Of a stretch of DNA of 64,000 bases, positions 49,422 to 57,658 are shown piece by piece (within the stretch, counting starts at the first letter, position 1; each line of letters begins with the position of its first letter). Source of the DNA: Terriglobia bacterium (GTDB taxonomy: Bacteria; Acidobacteriota; Terriglobia; Bryobacterales; Bryobacteraceae); contig JAJPHN010000051.1 of assembly GCA_021325235.1 (NCBI GenBank), forward strand, positions 1 to 64,000, written 5' to 3'. The position numbers and the translations under genes are program-made. A model generated the notes under the pieces. That model was not told where the DNA came from. It made no database searches and saw only the letters and a list, made by a program, of their open reading frames with translations.

Positions 49422-49670
49422 ATGGACGAGCAGCTTGTCGGCACCCTCCGGCACGAGAACTACACGGCCGAGATCTTCAGTATCAGCCTTCCGGGAGAAT
49501 TCAGAGTTGTCTATCGCGACCCGCAGGGGCAGGCGATCGAGGAGGCGATGCTCACGGGCATCAGCAGCTACAAGCAGCGCGAAGCCGAGATTCATCGGCG
49601 GCTGGAGAAACTCGCGCATGGCGCCGCGCCTTCGGAAACAACGGATCGCGGCGATTCTGGCGAGTATTAG
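49422..49670 (+). CDS. Small hypothetical protein
   Basis: 82 residues from ATG 49422 (MDEQLVGTLRHENYTAEIFS); an upstream frame would overlap the preceding gene and lacks similarity in composition. Strand-rich (FRVVYRDPQGQAIEEAML) with a helical tail. No hydrophobic segment. It starts 22 bases after the membrane-protein stop and its TAG is shared with the convergent gene through a TTAG. No family recognised. Confidence 0.6.
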   Translation: MDEQLVGTLRHENYTAEIFSISLPGEFRVVYRDPQGQAIEEAMLTGISSYKQREAEIHRRLEKLAHGAAPSETTDRGDSGEY

Positions 49671-50152
49671 CGGTCGGCGATAGCCACTCGTTTCAGTTCC
49701 GCCGCAAAGCGCATGGCGTCTTCGGCCAGCACGCGCTCGAGAATCTTGAACCGGTAGCGCCGGGTGAACAAGTCGACAGTTCCAAAGCCGTCCCAATGGA
49801 TGCGCGGCCGGACATCGTCGACCTCGTCCAGTCTTACCGTTCGCTCCCGAGTCCACCACTTCGTTTGCCAGCCCCAACGTACAACGCCGGCTTCAACGCG
49901 CACGAATTGTTCTCCGGTCTGCTCTTCGATCGCGCTTCGCACGAAGAGGAACAGCAGCAAACTCAAGAAACAGGCGAGCAGGATCAGAACAGCGACATTT
50001 CCAGGCGAATGCATATTGAGCAGAATCGAGCCGAAGAAGCCGCAAGAGATGGCAATCATCGACAACGCAATAGGAATCGCGCCCAGTGTGCTGCCGGTGT
50101 ATCGAGGATGCCGCACACGAATGGACAAGTCTGTGTTCTGCCGTTCGAGCAC
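49667..50152 (-). CDS. Small membrane protein of the VgrG island (third PH-like copy)
   Basis: 161 residues. Two transmembrane helices (LGAIPIALSMIAISCGFFGSI and VLILLACFLSLLLFLFV) precede a soluble part of strands (RVEAGVVRWGWQTKWW, ERTVRLDEVDDVRPRI) and a C-terminal helix (LAEDAMRFAAELKRVA). That layout, two helices then a pleckstrin-homology-like core, is the same as the 149- and 176-residue proteins in this run. It lies 89 bases after the 149-residue gene and may be its co-transcribed third copy. Confidence 0.6.
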   Translation of the reverse strand: MLERQNTDLSIRVRHPRYTGSTLGAIPIALSMIAISCGFFGSILLNMHSPGNVAVLILLACFLSLLLFLFVRSAIEEQTGEQFVRVEAGVVRWGWQTKWWTRERTVRLDEVDDVRPRIHWDGFGTVDLFTRRYRFKILERVLAEDAMRFAAELKRVAIADR

Positions 50153-50241
50153 TCCGCGATGCCAGCGTTTGGCCTGACGAAAGATACCCTACTCCATTCT
50201 TTCCACTTGCATAGCTCTTAGTGAAACCGCTGGTCGCGGAA

Positions 50242-50691
50242 TCAGTCGCGTCCGAGAAAGTGGTTGATTTCCTGTACAGCCCGCTCTTTTCCGCCCGCTT
50301 GATTCAGTTCCGATAATAGGCGGACCGATCCGTCTTCGAACTCGAGCTGGATCTGGCTGGTGGTCGATCCGGTGCGCAGCGATGCGCGCTTGAGCGACGA
50401 AAGCTCGTAACGCTCGGTAGTCCAGTGAAACAGGAAATAGTTTCGCAAAACCGCCGTGTTGAAGGTCTTGTCGAGTGTCAATTCGGCGCCTGAGGGCAGA
50501 AGAGCGAAGGCGAGCACTCCGAAGATCGAGATCGTGATCAACTTCCCTTTGGGCAGGGGCTTCCGCCTCGCCAGCACGGCGACGGGCCAGATGGTTGCTG
50601 CTCCGAGTACTAGCAGCAGCAGAATATTGATCGGACAGACAACTACGATCCGGTTCGATGATGCTAGCGAGTGAATGCTGAAACCAAGCAT
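50242..50691 (-). CDS. Small membrane protein of the VgrG island (paralog B)
   Basis: 149 residues with two transmembrane helices (PINILLLLVLGAATIWPVAVL, LITISIFGVLAFALLP). The core reads LDKTFNTAVLRNYFLFHWTT, then YELSSLKRASLRTGSTTSQIQ, ending VQEINHFLGRD. The C-terminal halves match the 176-residue protein at 53218: LDRSSNSAVVQ...RLDNIERAVLEY...VNAINSFLGAK. So this is a diverged duplicate. Function unknown; membrane location and duplication within a spike-protein operon allow an immunity role, an inference. Confidence 0.6.
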   Translation of the reverse strand: MLGFSIHSLASSNRIVVVCPINILLLLVLGAATIWPVAVLARRKPLPKGKLITISIFGVLAFALLPSGAELTLDKTFNTAVLRNYFLFHWTTERYELSSLKRASLRTGSTTSQIQLEFEDGSVRLLSELNQAGGKERAVQEINHFLGRD

Positions 50692-50757
50692 GTTCTCCTT
50701 GCAACGCTACCGCGAGCACAATGCCGGCCTTGTATCGCTGCTGATGGGCCTGTGCAA

Positions 50758-51054
50758 TCAGCGCGATGCTCGTTCCCGCGCCAATCGCGCCTGCTGCTCG
50801 ATACCGGCGCGGAAACGGCGCCTGATCTCCGGACCCAGCGACTGAAGCGGCGCATTATCGGCGAAAGTCGACAGATGATGGTCAACCGCTCTTTCGGCAA
50901 AGGCAATCGCGGCTTCCACGCTGATCGGGTCGCCGGGCTCCATGGTGCAGGACATCAGATCGCCGTTTACTCGCGCGATCACTTCCTCGAAATCTTCTTT
51001 GAGTTGCGCGGCTTCTTCCCCGCTTGCTACAGAAACATGAATATCGTCAGACAT
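50758..51054 (-). CDS. Small helical protein of the VgrG island
   Basis: 98 residues from ATG 51054 (MSDDIHVSVASGEEAAQLKE), overlapping the end of the previous gene by 8 bases. It is charged and helical (EDFEEVIARVNGDL, EAAIAFAERAVDHHL, RRRFRAGIEQQARLARE) without a hydrophobic segment. An upstream extension of the frame is unlikely because it runs through the neighbouring gene. The size and acidity would suit an adaptor or chaperone, which is a guess. Confidence 0.55.
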   Translation of the reverse strand: MSDDIHVSVASGEEAAQLKEDFEEVIARVNGDLMSCTMEPGDPISVEAAIAFAERAVDHHLSTFADNAPLQSLGPEIRRRFRAGIEQQARLARERASR

Positions 51055-51853
51055 TATGACCATCCAGATCAGCGGAATGCTGCAGGGCCCACGAAGAATT
51101 CCCGCTCCCGCTTGCAACCGGATGCAGACCCGCCGCTCGCAAAACCGGGTCGAGGTCGTTGCGCGAAAGCAGCACCACCTCCTGCGTATCGAAACATTCA
51201 CGCAAATAGAGCTCGCCATTACCGAGCCACTGGCTAATCGCTTCGCCCGCACCGGCTATGGTTTGTGACGTCAGCAGTGGCAGATAAAACGGGAACGTTT
51301 GGAAATGTCCGGGCGACATCATCGGCCGGAACGCCTCACGGCTGTGGTGGCAGAACGAAGCGGAACCCTGCGCAAGCTGTGCGTCATTCTCGGCAGCGAA
51401 GTACAGCAGCGTAGCGACACCACCCCCGGCCAGCAGCCGGTACGCAGACATGGTCTGAGGATGCGCCGATACCCGGATGGCGGAGCGATCGTGAATTTTC
51501 GGAGGCGTGCCGTAGTCCACGTCCATCAGATCGGAAAGCAGCAGCGGTCGCGGAGGGGGCCCGGCCGGATCGAAGCAAAATCCCATCTCGGGCGACCAGG
51601 CGCGCGCATGGGTGCTGTACAGCTTCGCCTGCCCCCCGTGATGCAGCGGCTGCGTATCGATCCAGAGCGTCGGTCGCAGCGACAACTGCGCGGCGATGGC
51701 ATGCGTCAGCGCATCGACCATTGAGAAAAGCTCCGCGCGTGCATCACTCGAAAGCGGAAAGGCGCCTGTTTCAAGCCGGTACGCGTACCAGCCCCCGCCG
51801 GCGGCGGCCGCTTCCAGCAGCAGCGACGGAGTCTTCGCGCCGGTCTTGCTCAT
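51047..51853 (-). CDS. VgrG-island protein, second of a tandem paralog pair
   Basis: 268 residues from ATG 51853, overlapping the upstream stop as ATGA; a longer start at 51868 is less likely. No signal peptide or known motif. It shares spaced features with the 307-residue neighbour: GWYAYRLETGAFPLSSD versus SLYWLPAGEFPLRSD, a later YSTHARAWSPEMGF versus FEYRPITGLL, and a common C-terminal layout around SPGHFQTFPFYLPLLTSQ. The copies have diverged strongly, as expected of old duplicates under changing selection. Function unknown. Confidence 0.6.
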   Translation of the reverse strand: MSKTGAKTPSLLLEAAAAGGGWYAYRLETGAFPLSSDARAELFSMVDALTHAIAAQLSLRPTLWIDTQPLHHGGQAKLYSTHARAWSPEMGFCFDPAGPPPRPLLLSDLMDVDYGTPPKIHDRSAIRVSAHPQTMSAYRLLAGGGVATLLYFAAENDAQLAQGSASFCHHSREAFRPMMSPGHFQTFPFYLPLLTSQTIAGAGEAISQWLGNGELYLRECFDTQEVVLLSRNDLDPVLRAAGLHPVASGSGNSSWALQHSADLDGHNV

Positions 51854-52773
51854 TGTGGATCCTGCCACCCTTCTTCGCGCATCGCATCCAGAATCGCGAT
51901 CAGCCGTTCGTCGAATTTGGGCTCTTTAAAGCAGAAGAGAACACCGCGATCGGCTTCGCTCTCGATCGCGTAGGCAGAGAAAATCTGAAGCCAGCGGCTG
52001 CGAATCTCGGGTGTGGCCTCGAAAAAGTGCGCGCTGCGAAGTTTCGGAAGAACAAAGATAGCGTGGCGCTTTGCGGGTCCATCGGTCAGATGCGCCGCGA
52101 AGAGCTCCCGGCTCGCTTTGAGGAATGGATGCTGAAGCCGGTTGCCTTTGCGCAGCAGCTCGTCAAAGTCGACGCCCTTCATCGCCGGATGCGTTTGGAT
52201 GACGCGCGGCACATCAAATTGCGGAATGGCTGCTTCCTGCCCCTCCTCGATCCAGATGAACAACATGCCTCCGAAGCCGAAGAAATCGTTGCGCTGCTCC
52301 TGCGGCTTCGATCCCGAAAACCAGGCGCAGTAATCGGGAACGAGATGATCAAGGTTCAGTGTGCCATCCGGGCCGTGACTTTCGGTGAGCTGCTTGACTT
52401 CGAGCGAGGTGGGCGGTTTCGGAAGCTGCTGCCCCGGCGCAAGCAGTAGCCCGGTTATCGGGCGATACTCGAACAGCGTATTGGTGAAACGCTCGTTCAG
52501 ATCGGTTCGCGTGTATTTCAACTGCAGGAATTGTTCCACCGCCAGCTTGTCCTTGCGCAGTTCCTTGTCGAGCCGCGTGAAGAACTCGAGCATCCAGCGG
52601 CGGTGATCGGAGCGTAGCGGAAATTCGCCGGCCGGTAACCAGTACAAAGAAACATCGTCGATTGCCCTGGCCCGAACAAATGGCCGCAGGTCGCGCGCGC
52701 TCTTTACCTCGGTAAGCCGCTGCCGCCGGTGCGGCGGACTGGCGATTACTCCTTCTGTCTTCGGATCAGCCAT
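51850..52773 (-). CDS. VgrG-island protein, first of a tandem paralog pair
   Basis: 307 residues from ATG 52773 (MADPKTEGV), one base after the previous stop. Soluble, with FPLRSDHRRWMLEFFTRLDKEL near residue 50 and a C-terminal RWLQIFSAYAIESEADRGV. It looks related to the 268-residue protein that follows but not to any family I know. An effector, adaptor or immunity protein of the neighbouring spike are all possible; nothing in the sequence decides. Confidence 0.6.
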   Translation of the reverse strand: MADPKTEGVIASPPHRRQRLTEVKSARDLRPFVRARAIDDVSLYWLPAGEFPLRSDHRRWMLEFFTRLDKELRKDKLAVEQFLQLKYTRTDLNERFTNTLFEYRPITGLLLAPGQQLPKPPTSLEVKQLTESHGPDGTLNLDHLVPDYCAWFSGSKPQEQRNDFFGFGGMLFIWIEEGQEAAIPQFDVPRVIQTHPAMKGVDFDELLRKGNRLQHPFLKASRELFAAHLTDGPAKRHAIFVLPKLRSAHFFEATPEIRSRWLQIFSAYAIESEADRGVLFCFKEPKFDERLIAILDAMREEGWQDPQ

Positions 52774-52774
52774 A

Positions 52775-53221
52775 TCAGCGCGAACAGGCCCCAAAGCGAA
52801 TCGTGGTGTTCAGCCTGGCGCCGTTCTTCCTGCAGATCAAAGTTTCCTTGCCTGGCTGCTTGGCGCTCGGAGCGGCAAAGTTGAACGTGTCGCATTGCGA
52901 TCTCTCGAAACGCACCGGACCGTCCGGCGGATACACGAACGCATAGGCACTTGTGCCTGCGGCATTGAGCTTCAGCGCCGGAGCGGAATCGCCCAGGCTA
53001 AAGCTAAACACGCCTGAATCGTCTAGCCGGCAGCGATTGACATGCTGATCCCAGTAGCTAGAATCATTGCGCTGATAATTGACTGCGCCGATCGCTTCGC
53101 CTGGCGCAAACGTTCGTTTGTCGGCGTTTTCGACCATGTTGCCGAGCCGGTCGACGTTGCAGGCCGCCGCCAAAGAGAAGAGCGCAACAGTGAAGACCGT
53201 GAACGCGTTGGGCCTGATCAA
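52775..53221 (-). CDS. Lipoprotein-like protein of the VgrG island
   Basis: 148 residues from TTG 53221, sharing TTGA with the previous stop. A signal-peptide-like segment (FTVFTVALFSLAAAC) ends in Cys, reading like a weak lipobox (Ala-Ala-Ala-Cys). Several more Cys occur later (NRCRLDD, RSQCDTF, ETLICRK, GACSR), suggesting disulfides outside the cytoplasm. Family unknown; it lies in the middle of the coupled run. Confidence 0.55.
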   Translation of the reverse strand: MIRPNAFTVFTVALFSLAAACNVDRLGNMVENADKRTFAPGEAIGAVNYQRNDSSYWDQHVNRCRLDDSGVFSFSLGDSAPALKLNAAGTSAYAFVYPPDGPVRFERSQCDTFNFAAPSAKQPGKETLICRKNGARLNTTIRFGACSR

Positions 53222-53748
53222 TGCGTTTCCTTGGCTCCCAGGAAAGAATTGATGGCATTTACGGCTTCCTGTTGTCCGGGCCTTCCGCTCCAGAGGGGAT
53301 ACGCAAGATCACTACCGTGGTTAGCGATTAAGCGAATGCGACGGGCGTTTGGCTTGTATTCGAGAACAGCTCGCTCGATATTGTCGAGTCTCGTGCTTTG
53401 CGTTTGCGCGGGCAAAAAGAACGTCATCCGCGCCTGCACGACGGCGCTGTTGCTGGAGCGATCGAGCACAATCGAGCCGCTGCTGTAGGAGACAGCCCAG
53501 AAAAGCAGCAAGCAGGCGAGCATACCGCCAATTCCAATCAGCCAGAATCGCTGCATGGCGGCGGACACCTCTGCTGGAGTTTTGGAAAGAGAGAAAACTC
53601 GCCGTGCCGACCGGCTGGCCGGGTAACCGATCGCTAGTCCGAAAAGAACCAAAATAATCACGAGCCAGGGGGAAACCAGCGATGTGCCCGGCGCGGCGAT
53701 CACGAGCCGGTCCGGAGCCGGATGAGCGATCCGAAATTCGGCGGCCAT
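53218..53748 (-). CDS. Small membrane protein of the VgrG island (paralog A)
   Basis: 176 residues. Two transmembrane helices (LVSPWLVIILVLFGLAIG and FWLIGIGGMLACLLLFWAV) are followed by strands SSGSIVLDRSSNSAVVQ, RLDNIERAVLEYKPNAR and a closing helix AVNAINSFLGAK. The last part resembles the 149-residue protein at 50242, so the island has a duplicated gene. A pleckstrin-like core is a guess from the strand pattern. Confidence 0.6.
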   Translation of the reverse strand: MAAEFRIAHPAPDRLVIAAPGTSLVSPWLVIILVLFGLAIGYPASRSARRVFSLSKTPAEVSAAMQRFWLIGIGGMLACLLLFWAVSYSSGSIVLDRSSNSAVVQARMTFFLPAQTQSTRLDNIERAVLEYKPNARRIRLIANHGSDLAYPLWSGRPGQQEAVNAINSFLGAKETH

Positions 53749-53751
53749 CTC

Positions 53752-54495
53752 TCAAGCCCAGGGACTGTCGATGTGAACCGCGATGCAGATGCCGACTCGA
53801 ACCGGCATGATGATCGTACGAGCGGCGCCAATCTGTGCGTTCAGGGCGGCGATGTCGTTGTGCACGCCTTTCATCTCCTCTTCGGCCGCCTTTTCCTTTA
53901 CATCGAGCGCGACTGCTTCATTCGCAAAGCCGCCGGCACCCACCTGCGCGCCCCACGCTTCCGCACCTGCGCCCCAGGCTTCGGCTTTGGCGACTGTGGC
54001 ATCGAGCACTATACCTTTTGCTTCGATGCTCGAAGCCTTGACCGCGAAATCGATGTTCTTGTATTCGCCTTCGACATTAAGGATGTCGAAGGTGTGAGTG
54101 GGGTTGATCTGGTGGTCCTGCTCGTGATGCAGATCGGTGTGCTCGCCGATGTACTCGAAGCGGCTGCCGGAGTGATAGTATTCCTTCACTTCGCCGATGC
54201 GATTGTCAGTCGTCTCGCCGTTTACTTTGAAGTCGAGATTGTCCTCAATCGTCCATTGCTGGTTCTGCAGGATGTGCGTCTTCAGATCGTTCTTGATGTT
54301 CTCCGTCTGATTACCCTGAATTTCCTGCCAGCGGTCGCCATGTATCAGCTTGCTATCCACTCCGTTGGTACCGCTGACGGCTGTCACCGAAGTCATCGCG
54401 CCGAGATTCAAGGCGCCGAGCTTCGGAGTAGCGCTGTCCCGCGAGATGCCGTTCGAAGCAGTTGGCGTATGAACATTGCCCTGGAAAACGCTCAT
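53752..54495 (-). CDS. VgrG-adjacent protein with beta-helix-like segment
   Basis: 247 residues. After a low-complexity start (MSVFQGNVHTPTASNG), residues about 50-100 read HGDRWQEIQGNQTENIKN, DLKTHILQNQQWTIEDNLD and FKVNGETTDNRIGEVKEY, a run of short alternating polar strands like the octad repeats of gp5/VgrG needle domains. The C-terminus is Ala/Gly/Glu-rich and ends with a hydrophobic stretch (RTIIMPVRVGICIAVHI). It begins 38 bases after vgrG ends, so it is probably made with the spike and could extend it or load onto it; this is an inference. Confidence 0.55.
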   Translation of the reverse strand: MSVFQGNVHTPTASNGISRDSATPKLGALNLGAMTSVTAVSGTNGVDSKLIHGDRWQEIQGNQTENIKNDLKTHILQNQQWTIEDNLDFKVNGETTDNRIGEVKEYYHSGSRFEYIGEHTDLHHEQDHQINPTHTFDILNVEGEYKNIDFAVKASSIEAKGIVLDATVAKAEAWGAGAEAWGAQVGAGGFANEAVALDVKEKAAEEEMKGVHNDIAALNAQIGAARTIIMPVRVGICIAVHIDSPWA

Positions 54496-54533
54496 GATTT
54501 ATAACTCTCTTTCAGCAGCGAAAGCAAATATAA

Positions 54534-56096
54534 TCAGCCCACTTCGCGAGAAAAGAACTTCGACTGGATATGCACGCGCCCGTCGGGCGCAGAGAGAACG
54601 ATGTCGCCTGCCGATTGTAGCGTGATCAAAGTGCGCCCGGTGCCGTCGGATTTTTCGGTCAGGCTGATCGAGGAAGAGTTCGGGGTCGCGACCACAATCG
54701 TCTCTTTACCCTTCTCATCCACAAATTGCACACGGTTTCCGCTCTTGGTCACGATGCGCTTGATTTCGTTCGGCGCGATATTGTTGCCGAAGAATTCCTG
54801 CCGCGGCGCCTGCTGGACACCGTTCCAGAGGGAACCCAACACGATGGGCCGCTCGGGATCGCCATCCTCGAATGCCACCGCGACTTCGTCGCCCACCTCC
54901 GGCATGAACATGAATCCACGGTCGGGTCCGGCGTGCGGCGAGACCGTTCGCGCCCAATGTGTCGAGCCGTCGTTCTGCCAGAAAAACTGAACCTTGATCC
55001 GGCCCATCTTTTTCGGATCGTTGTGCTCGACCACGCGCGCCGGAACAACACCGTACCAGGCGCGCAGAGCCGGCTGCCGCGGATTGCGATATTTTCGCCA
55101 CGGCGTGCAAACGAATTCATTGAAATAGCCGGCGGACTCCCAGCGATGCACCACTTTGATCAGCCCATAGCTGCCCTGCGCATCCAGCACGCCTTCCACG
55201 CGCACCGTATCGCCGGCCTGCAACTGCTCATTGCGGCTGCGACCTGAGGCCGTGATGCTGGCACCAATCGAACGCTGGCTCTCGCCCTCGAGATTCTGCT
55301 GGTAGTCCGCGAGCGTCATAGCGCGAGCTCGCTGCGGCGCAAATCCCGCCGGCAGCACATTCGGCGACTTATTCATTACGGCGGTGGTGAGCCGCTCACT
55401 GGAGGAAAAGAAATCCGGCTCCGCGCCTACCCGTTCAAAGACGTTCGACTCCATGGCGTGATGGTCGTAATGCGATCCATCGAAGCTCGCCGGGGATAAT
55501 CGGCCGTTCACTCTGAAATCGATCAGGTCGCCTTCCGCGCGGAATTCGAGCGAATGGCTGGCCTGGAACTGATCGAAGATTGCAACCCCGTTTTGCGACG
55601 GGCGCAGCCAGCATCCGTAATCGTCCACGATCCGGTTGAGGAACGAAAAATCCGTTTCGCCGTATTGCACGTAGTTGAGCGGCTTTTGCGAGCTGGCCGA
55701 AACGGTGGCCGAAAGTCCGGCGCGGCCCGTAACCGCGCTCGCGATCTGCTCCAGCGTGGAATCGGCATAGTATTGCTTGCGCGCTGCGACGTCCAGTTTG
55801 TAGGATTCCGAGACGCAAATCAGGCGCGCCGTGTACGTTCCCCAGACTTCGTAGGCCAGCTCGACATCGAGCACGAAGCCGGTGAAATTGACATGAACCG
55901 CGCCGTCCTCGCCGGTGGTGGTTACCTGGACCGATTCGCCCAGGAAGCTCTCAATGGGAATGCGGCGATCGGTGCTCTGGCGGCAGTAGATCGTGCACCA
56001 CCAGTGCTGATTGAGCTCCTGTACGATCTCGACCGAGCCAAGCAGAGCGTCCTGGAGAAGATTGTCGCCAATCGTAATGTGGGCTGGTGAACTCAC
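54534..56096 (-). CDS. vgrG: VgrG-type spike protein
   Basis: Trimeric spike at the tip of type VI secretion and related contractile injection systems. The GTG at 56096 has GGGGGAG just upstream and gives 520 residues. The gp27-like part (AHITIGDNLLQDALLGS, then YGETDFSFLNRIVDDYG) leads to the hallmark gp5 OB-fold stretch: KMGRIKVQFFWQNDG, WARTVSPHAGPDRGFMFMP, VGDEVAVAFEDGDPERP and IVLGSLWNG. A short strand-rich tail ends SAPDGRVHIQSKFFSREVG. No C-terminal effector domain is attached and no tss, sheath or baseplate genes are in the window, so the apparatus must be elsewhere or absent. Confidence 0.92.
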   Translation of the reverse strand: MSSPAHITIGDNLLQDALLGSVEIVQELNQHWWCTIYCRQSTDRRIPIESFLGESVQVTTTGEDGAVHVNFTGFVLDVELAYEVWGTYTARLICVSESYKLDVAARKQYYADSTLEQIASAVTGRAGLSATVSASSQKPLNYVQYGETDFSFLNRIVDDYGCWLRPSQNGVAIFDQFQASHSLEFRAEGDLIDFRVNGRLSPASFDGSHYDHHAMESNVFERVGAEPDFFSSSERLTTAVMNKSPNVLPAGFAPQRARAMTLADYQQNLEGESQRSIGASITASGRSRNEQLQAGDTVRVEGVLDAQGSYGLIKVVHRWESAGYFNEFVCTPWRKYRNPRQPALRAWYGVVPARVVEHNDPKKMGRIKVQFFWQNDGSTHWARTVSPHAGPDRGFMFMPEVGDEVAVAFEDGDPERPIVLGSLWNGVQQAPRQEFFGNNIAPNEIKRIVTKSGNRVQFVDEKGKETIVVATPNSSSISLTEKSDGTGRTLITLQSAGDIVLSAPDGRVHIQSKFFSREVG

Positions 56097-56362: not shown

Positions 56363-57658
56363 CTAACTCGCCCACACGCGTCGAGCCCGTGCGGTGAGCT
56401 GCTCCGCAGTATTTAGCAACGTGAGAAAGCTTGTATTAGCGCGGACGGACTCGAGCCAAGGATCGCATCGTAGCGTATAGGAAGCGCAGACAAACCCCGA
56501 TGCCGTCGCCTCGCGAATGGCGGTTATGGCTCGGTCGGGTCGCCTGATATATGCATAATGACGGGCGAGGTAGAAGAGCATTTCGGGTTCCGGTAGATGA
56601 CCTCTCGTGTCCATCAATGTCACGGCATCGTCGAATCGTTCTTCCGCGATCGCGAGGAGTGATGTCATCGCCATACTCATCATTTCGGAGCAGCCCGTAG
56701 CGGGTAGCCGCTGCCGCAATAAAGCGCGCGTTCGTTCCATGTCTCCCAAGGCGGCCCACGCTGCGGCGTCAAGATAAAAGGCGGCTCGACCGCCATAGCG
56801 CTCGACCGTCGTTTTGTAATCTCCCTTCAGAAAATATGTATGCGGCACGCTTGTGACGATCGTGGGATCTATGTCTTGCGCCCTCCTGTGAGCTTCAATA
56901 GATTCATCGAGCAAGCCGCAATAGCGGAGCGCTTGTACAAGTCCAGCGAAGCTTTCAGGTTCCGACGGGTGACCCGACAGCCTTCGACGGAGCCTCTCCA
57001 AGGCTTCGAGCGCTTCTCCCAGATCCGCCTGAACGGGCGTGTAGAACTGGTGTGCGCAGGCGAGATCGGGGTCTATTGCAAACGCGCGCCTAAACGCGGC
57101 CTGGGCTAATTCCATCTCACTCTCCGCATTCTTGTTGCTGAATTTCGCGAGGATCGCGCAGGTTCTGCCGAGCCATGCCCAGGCGAGCGCGAACGTCGGG
57201 TCCTTGGCGATGCACAGCCAATACAGTTCTCGGGCTCGCATCACTCCTTCCAGCGAGCGGTTAGCGGTCAACTCCTTGGCTCGAGAAAAGATTTCGTAGG
57301 TATCGCGCGCAACACCGGGTTCGCCATGCACGGGCAGTTCGAAACGATATCCGTGTTTCGAAACTGTCCGAATTGCCTCACGTCCGATCGCTTTGCGTAA
57401 GCTGACCATGGCATTGGTCAGATTGGCCTCGGCGACGAAGGTCGATGGCCAAAGGGTCTGCATCAGTTCGTCTTTCGTGACGAGCCGGCCCGCTTTGCGG
57501 ACAAGACAGACAAGCGCATCGAAGCTCTTGGGAGTAAGGGAGACTGGTGCATCCTGTCGCTTCAGCAGGCGTTCTGCGGGATACACTTCGAATTCGCTGA
57601 AGCGGTAGGCCGTCTCAGGGCGCGTTTGATTTTTGTTTGATATTTCGTGTGCGGCCAT
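56363..57658 (-). CDS. Winged-helix (OmpR-type) transcriptional regulator with TPR region
   Basis: 431 residues. The N-terminal DNA-binding domain spans about 19-115 and is OmpR/CadC-like: YRFSEFEVYPAERLLKR, LTPKSFDALVCLVRKAGRLV, and ANLTNAMVSLRKAIGREAIR as the recognition helix. The rest is a helical repeat region (for example ALAWAWLGRTCAILAKFSN and the ELYWLCIAKDPTFAL unit), TPR-like. There is no transmembrane helix, so it differs from CadC and is probably cytoplasmic. It lies directly upstream of the VgrG island on the same strand, 266 bases away, so it may or may not control it. Confidence 0.85.
   Translation of the reverse strand: MAAHEISNKNQTRPETAYRFSEFEVYPAERLLKRQDAPVSLTPKSFDALVCLVRKAGRLVTKDELMQTLWPSTFVAEANLTNAMVSLRKAIGREAIRTVSKHGYRFELPVHGEPGVARDTYEIFSRAKELTANRSLEGVMRARELYWLCIAKDPTFALAWAWLGRTCAILAKFSNKNAESEMELAQAAFRRAFAIDPDLACAHQFYTPVQADLGEALEALERLRRRLSGHPSEPESFAGLVQALRYCGLLDESIEAHRRAQDIDPTIVTSVPHTYFLKGDYKTTVERYGGRAAFYLDAAAWAALGDMERTRALLRQRLPATGCSEMMSMAMTSLLAIAEERFDDAVTLMDTRGHLPEPEMLFYLARHYAYIRRPDRAITAIREATASGFVCASYTLRCDPWLESVRANTSFLTLLNTAEQLTARARRVWAS

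What the first reader, a model, noticed from the sequence alone, without database searches (positions are those of the whole stretch)
49667..56096. VgrG island with duplicated genes of unknown family and no secretion apparatus
vgrG is followed on the same strand by eight genes: a beta-helix-like protein, a membrane protein, a lipoprotein-like protein, two paralogs of an unrecognised family, a 98-residue protein and two more membrane proteins. Five successive genes from 53748 to 50758 overlap or abut within one base. None has a toxin domain I know, yet the mix of soluble and membrane proteins downstream of a spike is the usual shape of effector-immunity modules. With no tube, sheath or baseplate genes in 64 kb it could be a new orphan-spike system.
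Basis: partly seen in the sequence, partly recalled or inferred. Interest (0 to 1): 0.8.

Follow-up and report, generated by a model that had tools for sequence, protein, structure and literature searches.

The report
Split-needle spike cassette of a T6SS
This gene island looks like a swappable spike tip for a little-known type VI secretion system of soil Acidobacteriota, in which the needle is a separate protein followed by two partner proteins of an undescribed family, and the usual tip cap (PAAR) appears to be missing.

Summary
The nine genes are real and in the order described. "No secretion apparatus" fails: contig C43 of the same genome has a divergent T6SS core (TssB, TssC, TssG, TssK, ClpB/V-like and FHA by family models in it or close relatives; Hcp, TssE and TssF only by position). 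Its TssC belongs to the Bacteroidota-type family PF17541. g2 is a stand-alone phage-gp5-like needle. g5 and g6 are paralogs without a significant Pfam, NCBIfam, PDB or fold match. The order g2-g5-g6 holds in 36 of 36 g5 copies from 20 genomes; 30 are headed by vgrG. In 399 class genomes g5 and this TssC each occur in 20, 19 shared. PAAR is missing from 17 of 20 g5 genomes, against 1 of 11 genomes with only the classical T6SS. Best reading: an exchangeable split-needle spike cassette, with VgrG as hub, g2 as needle, g5/g6 as a two-protein loading chaperone, and membrane genes g3/g8/g9 as possible immunity proteins. The window's cassette probably came from an Acidobacteriaceae-like donor. A new variant of T6SS spike, not a new orphan system.

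The parts
54534..56096 (-). g1 vgrG: hub (gp27-like) plus OB domain, without a recognisable needle; ORF open from 56270
   Evidence: Pfam Phage_base_V 1.9e-27, Phage_GPD 1.7e-14, no Gp5 model up to E 1; TIGR01646 4.7e-39; alignment with relatives
53752..54495 (-). g2: separately encoded gp5C-like beta-helical needle with a variable C-terminal part
   Evidence: profile A11 against PDB: phage baseplate central spike 9f4a E 7.7e-8, T4 gp5 6e-6; Gp5_trimer_C 0.0011, below cut-off, for this copy and 1.4e-60 for the longest relative
53218..53748 (-). g3: small membrane protein; candidate cognate immunity protein
   Evidence: hydrophobic segments; 52% to its L055 counterpart, beside a g2 whose C-terminus is 72% identical
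52775..53221 (-). g4: lipoprotein-like exported protein, function unknown
   Evidence: N-terminal hydrophobic segment followed by LAAAC, read by eye; 26% counterpart at the same place in L055
51850..52794 (-). g5: conserved partner of the needle, new family; likely chaperone/adaptor
   Evidence: no Pfam match in 34 of 34 members; AF2 pLDDT 83.7, pTM 0.80; no significant PDB or BFVD fold match; 36 of 36 copies after a g2 and before a g6
51047..51868 (-). g6: paralog of g5, the next gene in 36 of 36 sets; likely heteromeric partner
   Evidence: A9 against A10 probability 99.4; no Pfam match in 33 of 33 members; AF2 pLDDT 86.6, pTM 0.85; no significant PDB fold match
50758..51054 (-). g7: 98-residue soluble protein, unknown
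   Evidence: 51% collinear counterpart in L055, the only good match among the loci searched
50242..50691 (-). g8: g3-family membrane protein; looks like an orphan immunity protein matching another cassette
   Evidence: 64% to the g3 of L067, whose g2 C-terminus is only 20% identical to the window's
49667..50152 (-). g9: divergent membrane protein, at most weakly g3-like
   Evidence: found by an iterated profile whose seed included it; no BLAST relative in the family set

Best explanation
The island is one of several exchangeable spike cassettes serving a divergent T6SS whose core genes lie on contig C43 of the same genome. VgrG forms a trimeric hub and OB collar but lacks the needle. The needle is g2, a separate trimeric gp5C-like beta-helix that would dock end to end on VgrG and carry a variable C-terminal part at the tip, where other T6SSs use a fused needle capped by PAAR. 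g5 and g6 would form a cytosolic two-protein chaperone that keeps the loose needle from aggregating, loads it on VgrG and thereby licenses baseplate assembly. The g3-family membrane proteins (g3, g8, perhaps g9) would protect the producer and kin from the g2-borne activity. Shown by computation: T6SS core genes, needle homology, needle and hub in separate genes, g5/g6 as one family, synteny, co-occurrence, missing PAAR matches. Inferred: trimer, docking, chaperoning, secretion, toxicity and immunity.
For: T6SS core genes in the same genome (TssB and TssC of C43 over Pfam cut-offs). g2 profile matches phage spike needles in the PDB; relatives of 849-1090 aa are mostly Gp5 repeats. g2-g5-g6 in 36 of 36 copies, inside tss operons in Bryobacteraceae. 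g5 and PF17541 TssC: 20 and 20 of 399 genomes, 19 shared, Fisher p 3e-30. PAAR_motif in 3 of 20 g5 genomes against 10 of 11 with only classical TssC (p 6e-5); PF13665 0 of 31. Two own VgrGs with long C-terminal extensions (C42, C20) have no g2/g5/g6 beside them. A Bacteroidota VgrG (L132) shows the usual fused state: Gp5_trimer_C 4e-11 in its C-terminus, also found by the g2 profile. Known analogy: DUF2169 chaperones help mount a non-canonical tip (PMC11883445, abstract and passages).
Against: No interaction, secretion or killing data, and no predicted complex. g5 and g6 share no family or fold with known T6SS chaperones, so the role rests on position. In Gemmatimonadota with the same core, where I expected a fused needle, the g2 profile found nothing in L123, L126, L127 and L128, and Gp5_trimer_C gave only sub-cut-off hits in L123 (0.019) and L127 (0.0022), none in L126 or L128. 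Three of 20 g5 genomes do have PAAR, and a divergent cap could escape the models; PF13665 was also 0 in the 11 classical genomes, so it discriminates nothing. Hcp, TssE and TssF of this system have no family match over cut-off and no PDB match. Co-occurrence is phylogenetically clustered, so the p values overstate independence. Bryobacteraceae sets lack g3, which weakens the immunity part.
Confidence: 0.55

Rival explanations
1. A true effector-immunity module: g5, g6 or the g2 C-terminus is a new toxin delivered on VgrG, and g3/g4/g8/g9 are immunity proteins.
For: VgrG of L067 is 64% identical to the window's while its g2 C-terminus is 20% and its g5/g6 37/27%: cassette exchange behind a conserved VgrG. 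g8 matches the g3 of a different cassette (64%), and L062 holds several g3-like genes, like the immunity arrays described in V. cholerae (PMC5361080, title and start of abstract in a search listing).
Against: No toxin family in Pfam, NCBIfam, PHROGs or PADLOC for the island's proteins. g5 and g6 are kept as a pair in 36 of 36 sets, and the 11 Bryobacteraceae loci have no g3-family gene.
Confidence: 0.27
2. g5 and g6 are structural tip or collar proteins that leave with the spike and replace PAAR directly.
For: They track the PAAR-less spike and sit among structural genes.
Against: Predicted as mixed alpha/beta proteins of 314 and 273 residues, much larger than the 70-position PAAR model; no fold match.
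Confidence: 0.13
3. An independent orphan-spike system working without any T6SS.
For: No core gene found in the 64 kb window; no classical TssC or phage sheath over cut-off in the genome.
Against: A PF17541-type T6SS core lies on C43 of the same genome; g5 without that TssC was seen in 1 of 399 genomes, an assembly in 340 contigs.
Confidence: 0.03

Closest known systems
Type VI secretion system type iii (Bacteroidota)
   Same: TssC of family PF17541 (2.7e-26 in L069; 1.9e-21 in the window's genome); the nine plasmid records hit by this TssC are Bacteroidota at 23-25% identity (phylum recalled).
   Different: Acidobacteriota/Gemmatimonadota hosts; needle and hub in separate genes; g5/g6; none of ten proteins near the core scanned in one genome matched a Tss family.
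Tvp / DUF2169 spike-tip chaperone complexes
   Same: Genes next to vgrG that help mount a non-canonical tip, with more than one accessory protein and a trimeric spike mimic (PMC13373197, abstract and passages; PMC11883445, abstract and passages).
   Different: No DUF2169 or pentapeptide match among the nine island proteins, none for g5/g6 relatives, no PF13665 in these genomes; g2 is a needle without an OB-domain match.
Phage T4 gp5 needle
   Same: g2 aligns with the gp5 beta-helix.
   Different: In T4 the needle is part of gp5; here it is its own gene, 227-1090 aa long apart from one 123-aa fragment.
VgrG effector-immunity islands with immunity arrays
   Same: Conserved VgrG followed by exchangeable genes and multiplied small membrane genes.
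   Different: The exchanged core is a needle and a paralog pair rather than a recognisable toxin.

Membership tests
Type VI secretion system | VgrG/TssI spike hub | tested here: met
   Pfam and NCBIfam matches over cut-off
Type VI secretion system | TssB/TssC sheath in the same genome | tested here: met
   C43 (L106): PF05591 25.7 bits (cut-off 24), PF17541 76.9 bits (cut-off 25)
Type VI secretion system | TssG, TssK and a ClpV-type ATPase | tested here: met
   G000 proteins are 54, 63 and 72% identical to L071 proteins that match PF06996 and PF05936 over cut-off and ClpB/ClpV models strongly but below NCBIfam cut-offs
Type VI secretion system | Hcp tube, TssE and TssF | tested here: inconclusive
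   candidates at the usual places only; no Pfam match over cut-off (TssF candidate: Baseplate_J 0.006, TIGR02243 1.6e-4, both below), no PDB match
Type VI secretion system | TssJ/L/M membrane complex | not tested
   no search with these families; ten proteins near the core in G162 gave none
Type VI secretion system | PAAR or PAAR-like tip | tested here: not met
   PF05488 absent from G000 and from 17 of 20 g5 genomes; PF13665 0 of 31. It lowers 'canonical spike', not 'T6SS'
T6SS type iii | PF17541-type TssC | tested here: met
T6SS type iii | TssN/O/P/Q/R membrane complex | tested here: inconclusive
   no match in ten proteins near the core of one single-contig genome; not searched genome-wide
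Extracellular contractile injection system | gp19-type tube and phage-type sheath | tested here: not met
   G000 has neither over cut-off; gp19 in 4 of 20 g5 genomes and 5 of 20 others
Tvp / DUF2169 chaperone system | DUF2169 protein with DUF4150 tip | tested here: not met
   no Pfam hit for 34 g5 and 33 g6 members; PF13665 0 of 31; DUF2169 not searched genome-wide
DUF4123 (Tap/TEC) or DUF1795 (Eag) adaptors | Pfam domain or fold | tested here: not met
   no Pfam hit; no significant PDB fold match, which alone is weak evidence
T6SS effector-immunity pair | toxicity neutralised by a cognate protein | not testable with these tools
   needs expression assays

The most novel reading that the evidence does not exclude
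A T6SS branch of Acidobacteriota has given up the PAAR cap: the spike needle is cut off VgrG and made a separate, length-variable (227-1090 aa), horizontally exchanged protein, mounted by a heteromeric chaperone of a new fold and paired with a membrane immunity family.
Probability: 0.36. Interest if true: 0.75.

Novelty: new variant of a known kind. Interest (0 to 1): 0.6.

Why it matters
PAAR is called an essential T6SS core part in EAEC, although the same paper notes reports that it is not always needed (PMC10715212, passages). A natural T6SS lineage that seems to lack it and uses a detachable needle would show what PAAR is for, and gives two unannotated families (g5, g6) a testable role. 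It also gives soil Acidobacteriota an injection system that the PF05943 TssC model does not detect.

Tried and rejected
Orphan system: rejected once PF17541 TssC was found in the genome; PF05943 alone had misled. eCIS: no sheath or gp19 tube over cut-off in G000. Plasmid or phage origin: no g5 match by tblastn in the plasmid and phage collections. A scan of genome contigs with g6 alone found nothing. Profiles of g5 and g6 against PDB sequences gave only E of 0.18 or more. Sub-cut-off Pfam hits (FtsX, Fasciclin, DUF2218, GH131) are ignored. Fold hits of g5/g6 (best E 0.08, 0.26 and 0.56, low TM-scores) are treated as no match. Fused needle in Gemmatimonadota VgrGs: I first read it by eye as clear; the g2 profile and Pfam give only weak support, so it no longer carries weight. 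A metal-binding apex in g2: one column has His in 17 of 27 filled rows, suggestive only.

Limits: G000 is a draft (60 contigs, 95.7% complete). The g5 tree is a quick one without bootstraps. Co-occurrence tests ignore phylogeny. g2 detection is weak for some copies (lowest 14.3 bits, L056); in L072 the second g2 was seen only inside a 583-aa frame that overlaps vgrG. G011, which has classical TssC, was not among the genomes. The own VgrG on C46 runs into the contig end, so what follows it is unknown.
Full report
OBSERVATION. The nine minus-strand genes are present as described. Of the nine proteins only VgrG matches curated Pfam or NCBIfam models above cut-off; PHROGs gave only weak hits for g2 and g7 besides VgrG and PADLOC nothing for g2-g9. 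g5/g6 and g3/g8 are paralog pairs. No T6SS core gene was found in the window with reference proteins from relatives.

THE GENE ORDER RECURS. In the same genome (G000; the window is on contig C4) g5 has two further copies, at C8 and C45, each in a g2-g5-g6 set without a vgrG directly upstream. In 399 genomes of the class a g5 profile matched 20. The places fetched (and the window) hold 36 g5 copies scoring over 90 bits. In 36 of 36 a g2 homolog precedes and a g6 homolog follows on the same strand; a vgrG lies within 2.6 kb upstream in 28, and in two more (L080, L082) it heads the set but is further away because g2 is 910 and 1090 aa long. The other six (L015, L016, L057, L058, L079, one set in L073) lack a vgrG directly upstream; L079 begins at a contig edge. 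20 of 20 genomes have a vgrG in the stretches read. Named relatives with the set include Granulicella sp. S156 and S190, Edaphobacter modestus, Terriglobus and Bryobacter MAGs and Bryobacteraceae MAGs. Contig lengths equate several G handles with these records, so I call family f11 Acidobacteriaceae and f1 Bryobacteraceae (taxonomy). In a phylum-wide sample 6 of 396 genomes matched, all in the same class.

IT BELONGS TO A T6SS. In Bryobacteraceae the set sits inside an operon. Locus L129 reads TssB-TssC-(168-aa protein)-Hcp-Hcp-TssE-TssF-TssG-vgrG-g2-g5-g6-TssK-ClpV-FHA, by my labels; L071 has a second vgrG-g2-g5-g6 after FHA. The labels rest on: TssB PF05591 8e-6, TssC PF17541 2.7e-26, TssG PF06996 1.4e-12, TssK PF05936 2e-5, all over cut-off; a ClpB/ClpV-type ATPase; an FHA domain. 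Hcp, TssE and TssF are my names by position and appearance: the TssF candidate has only sub-cut-off baseplate hits, and Hcp and TssE have no family match over cut-off and no PDB match. The classical TssC model PF05943 misses this system: it has no match over cut-off in G000 and none in 17 of 20 g5 genomes, against 12 of 20 comparison genomes that match. With PF17541, 20 of apparently the same 399 class genomes match, and 19 of these are g5 genomes; g5 alone is seen in G048 (340 contigs), PF17541 alone in G102 (920 contigs, 85% complete) (Fisher p 3e-30, ignoring phylogeny). G000 has the core on contig C43: homologs of FHA, ClpV, TssK, TssG, TssF, TssE, two Hcp, TssC and TssB; its TssB and TssC pass the Pfam cut-offs themselves. 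So 'no secretion apparatus' holds for the window, not for the genome.

g2 IS A SEPARATE NEEDLE. A profile of g2 and relatives matches a phage baseplate central spike (9f4a, E 7.7e-8), gp5 needle constructs (1.7e-7 to 4e-7) and T4 gp5 (6e-6) in the PDB. Relatives in L061, L080 and L082 (849, 910, 1090 aa) consist largely of Gp5 trimerisation repeats. The window VgrG shows no Gp5 model up to E 1, and it and its aligned relatives stop at about the same place, mostly ...SREVG or ...REIG. I looked for the fused state elsewhere. A Bacteroidota VgrG (L132) has Gp5_trimer_C at 4e-11 after its OB domain and is hit there by the g2 profile. Gemmatimonadota VgrGs beside the same core (L123, L126, L128) run on past the common end, and no g2, g5 or g6 was found in those stretches (6-21 kb); but the g2 profile does not match their extensions, and Pfam gives only a sub-cut-off Gp5 hit in L123 (0.019) and in L127 (0.0022). 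So a needle split in Acidobacteriota is likely, but the Gemmatimonadota comparison is weak. Two other VgrGs of G000 (C42, 888 aa; C20, 749 aa) carry long C-terminal extensions and have no g2/g5/g6 in the stretches read; the C42 extension holds a G-Y-S-K-G stretch like a lipase motif (by eye, motif recalled; no Pfam hit there). A further one, on C46, is cut by the contig end.

PAAR IS MISSING. PF05488 matches 3 of 20 g5 genomes, 10 of 11 comparison genomes with only classical TssC, and 0 of 5 with neither. Two of the three (G327, G394) also have classical TssC, with a PAAR about 12 kb from it; in G187 the PAAR lies 4-5 kb from gp19 tube genes. G260 has classical TssC but no PAAR match. PF13665 matched 0 of 31 genomes, classical ones included, so it adds only that no such domain was missed. 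Two single-contig genomes listed as 100% complete (G162, G204) have g5 and PF17541 TssC but no PF05488, PF13665, PF05943 or gp19 match.

g5 AND g6. No Pfam family matches any of 34 g5 or 33 g6 members at E 0.01. Profiles find nothing significant in PDB sequences. AlphaFold2 gives good models (g5 pLDDT 83.7, pTM 0.80; g6 pLDDT 86.6, pTM 0.85) with largely the same order of strands and helices, but no PDB match (best E 0.08 and 0.56) and, for g5, no viral one. The closest functional analogy is the DUF2169 chaperone that helps mount a non-canonical tip on VgrG (PMC11883445, abstract and passages) and the multi-protein Tvp complexes (PMC13373197, abstract and passages); g5 and g6 match neither. 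I infer a two-protein needle chaperone from position, pairing and the missing PAAR, not from homology.

MEMBRANE GENES. g3-family proteins (hydrophobic segments, then a beta-rich-looking end) were found in 14 of 17 Acidobacteriaceae loci and in none of 11 Bryobacteraceae loci (L069-L079), but in three G000 sets. The window's g3 resembles that of L055 (52%), whose g2 C-terminus is 72% identical to the window's. g8 resembles the g3 of L067 (64%), whose VgrG is 64% identical but whose g2 C-terminus is only 20%. An extra protein matching a different cassette is what an orphan immunity gene would look like; L062 carries several. This part is suggestive only.

ORIGIN. Locus L055 (G187) has the collinear series vgrG-g2-g3-g4-g5-g6-g7 at 69/69/52/26/60/42/51% identity, just beyond its own ClpV, FHA and PP2C-like genes (PP2C label by eye). 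On a quick tree the window g5 pairs with L055 (SH-aLRT 100) inside a six-row clade whose other five rows are Acidobacteriaceae (98), and the three G000 copies fall in three places. None of the 16 other same-genus genomes searched has a g5 match. Horizontal gain of the cassette is the simplest reading.

LITERATURE. Searches (open-licence PMC only; listings of at most 25 papers each) showed no description of this T6SS branch, of a needle encoded apart from VgrG, or of g5/g6. One survey notes one Acidobacteria and one Gemmatimonadetes plasmid T6SS forming a clade within i4b by TssB (PMC9113992, passages); whether it is this system I did not test, and g5 gave no plasmid hit.

VERDICT. A real, recurrent spike cassette of a divergent T6SS: a new variant of a known kind, not a new orphan system. 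The strongest new points are the separate needle, the missing PAAR and the undescribed g5/g6 pair.

Noticed in passing
L107 2244-4795 (G162); L106 9381-11474 (own contig C43): Next to this T6SS core in G162 lies a ThiF (E1-like) gene, a RING-like gene (just below cut-off), a gene that looks ubiquitin-like by eye and an E2-like gene (below cut-off). The window's genome has a ThiF protein and the same small gene family there. A link between the two is unexplained.
   Followed up: partly
L015 11166-12011(-), L057 11339-12340(-), L119, L120; L016 7830-8708(+): A DapD-like gene (name recalled from its sequence, not tested) stands directly before g2 in sets without an upstream same-strand vgrG in four loci, and lies downstream on the other strand in a fifth.
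   Followed up: no
L061 6684-9233, L080 5965-8697, L082 10151-13423: Needle relatives of 849-1090 aa made mostly of short Gp5 repeats, far longer than the usual 227-273 aa.
   Followed up: partly
G000:C20:21854-23287 (in L020): A degraded vgrG in pieces with stops in frame.
   Followed up: no
L062 (G394): A second set in fragments (VgrG 113 aa, g2 123 aa, g6 86 aa) mixed with several g3-like and other small membrane genes.
   Followed up: no
L107 8279-10438: A 719-aa protein with caspase (Peptidase_C14) and TPR domains, plus two DUF4384 proteins, near the T6SS core of G162.
   Followed up: no
L127 1-2397: A Longimicrobium MAG VgrG with a weak CHAP-domain match at its C-terminus (6.8e-5, below cut-off).
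   Followed up: no
window 56363-57658(-): A regulator with an OmpR-type DNA-binding domain and TPR repeats lies directly upstream of vgrG on the same strand; possible regulator of the island.
   Followed up: no
L122: The public record is titled Arcobacter sp., yet its genes are this Bryobacteraceae-type T6SS; its contig length equals G142:C123, so the title looks wrong.
   Followed up: no
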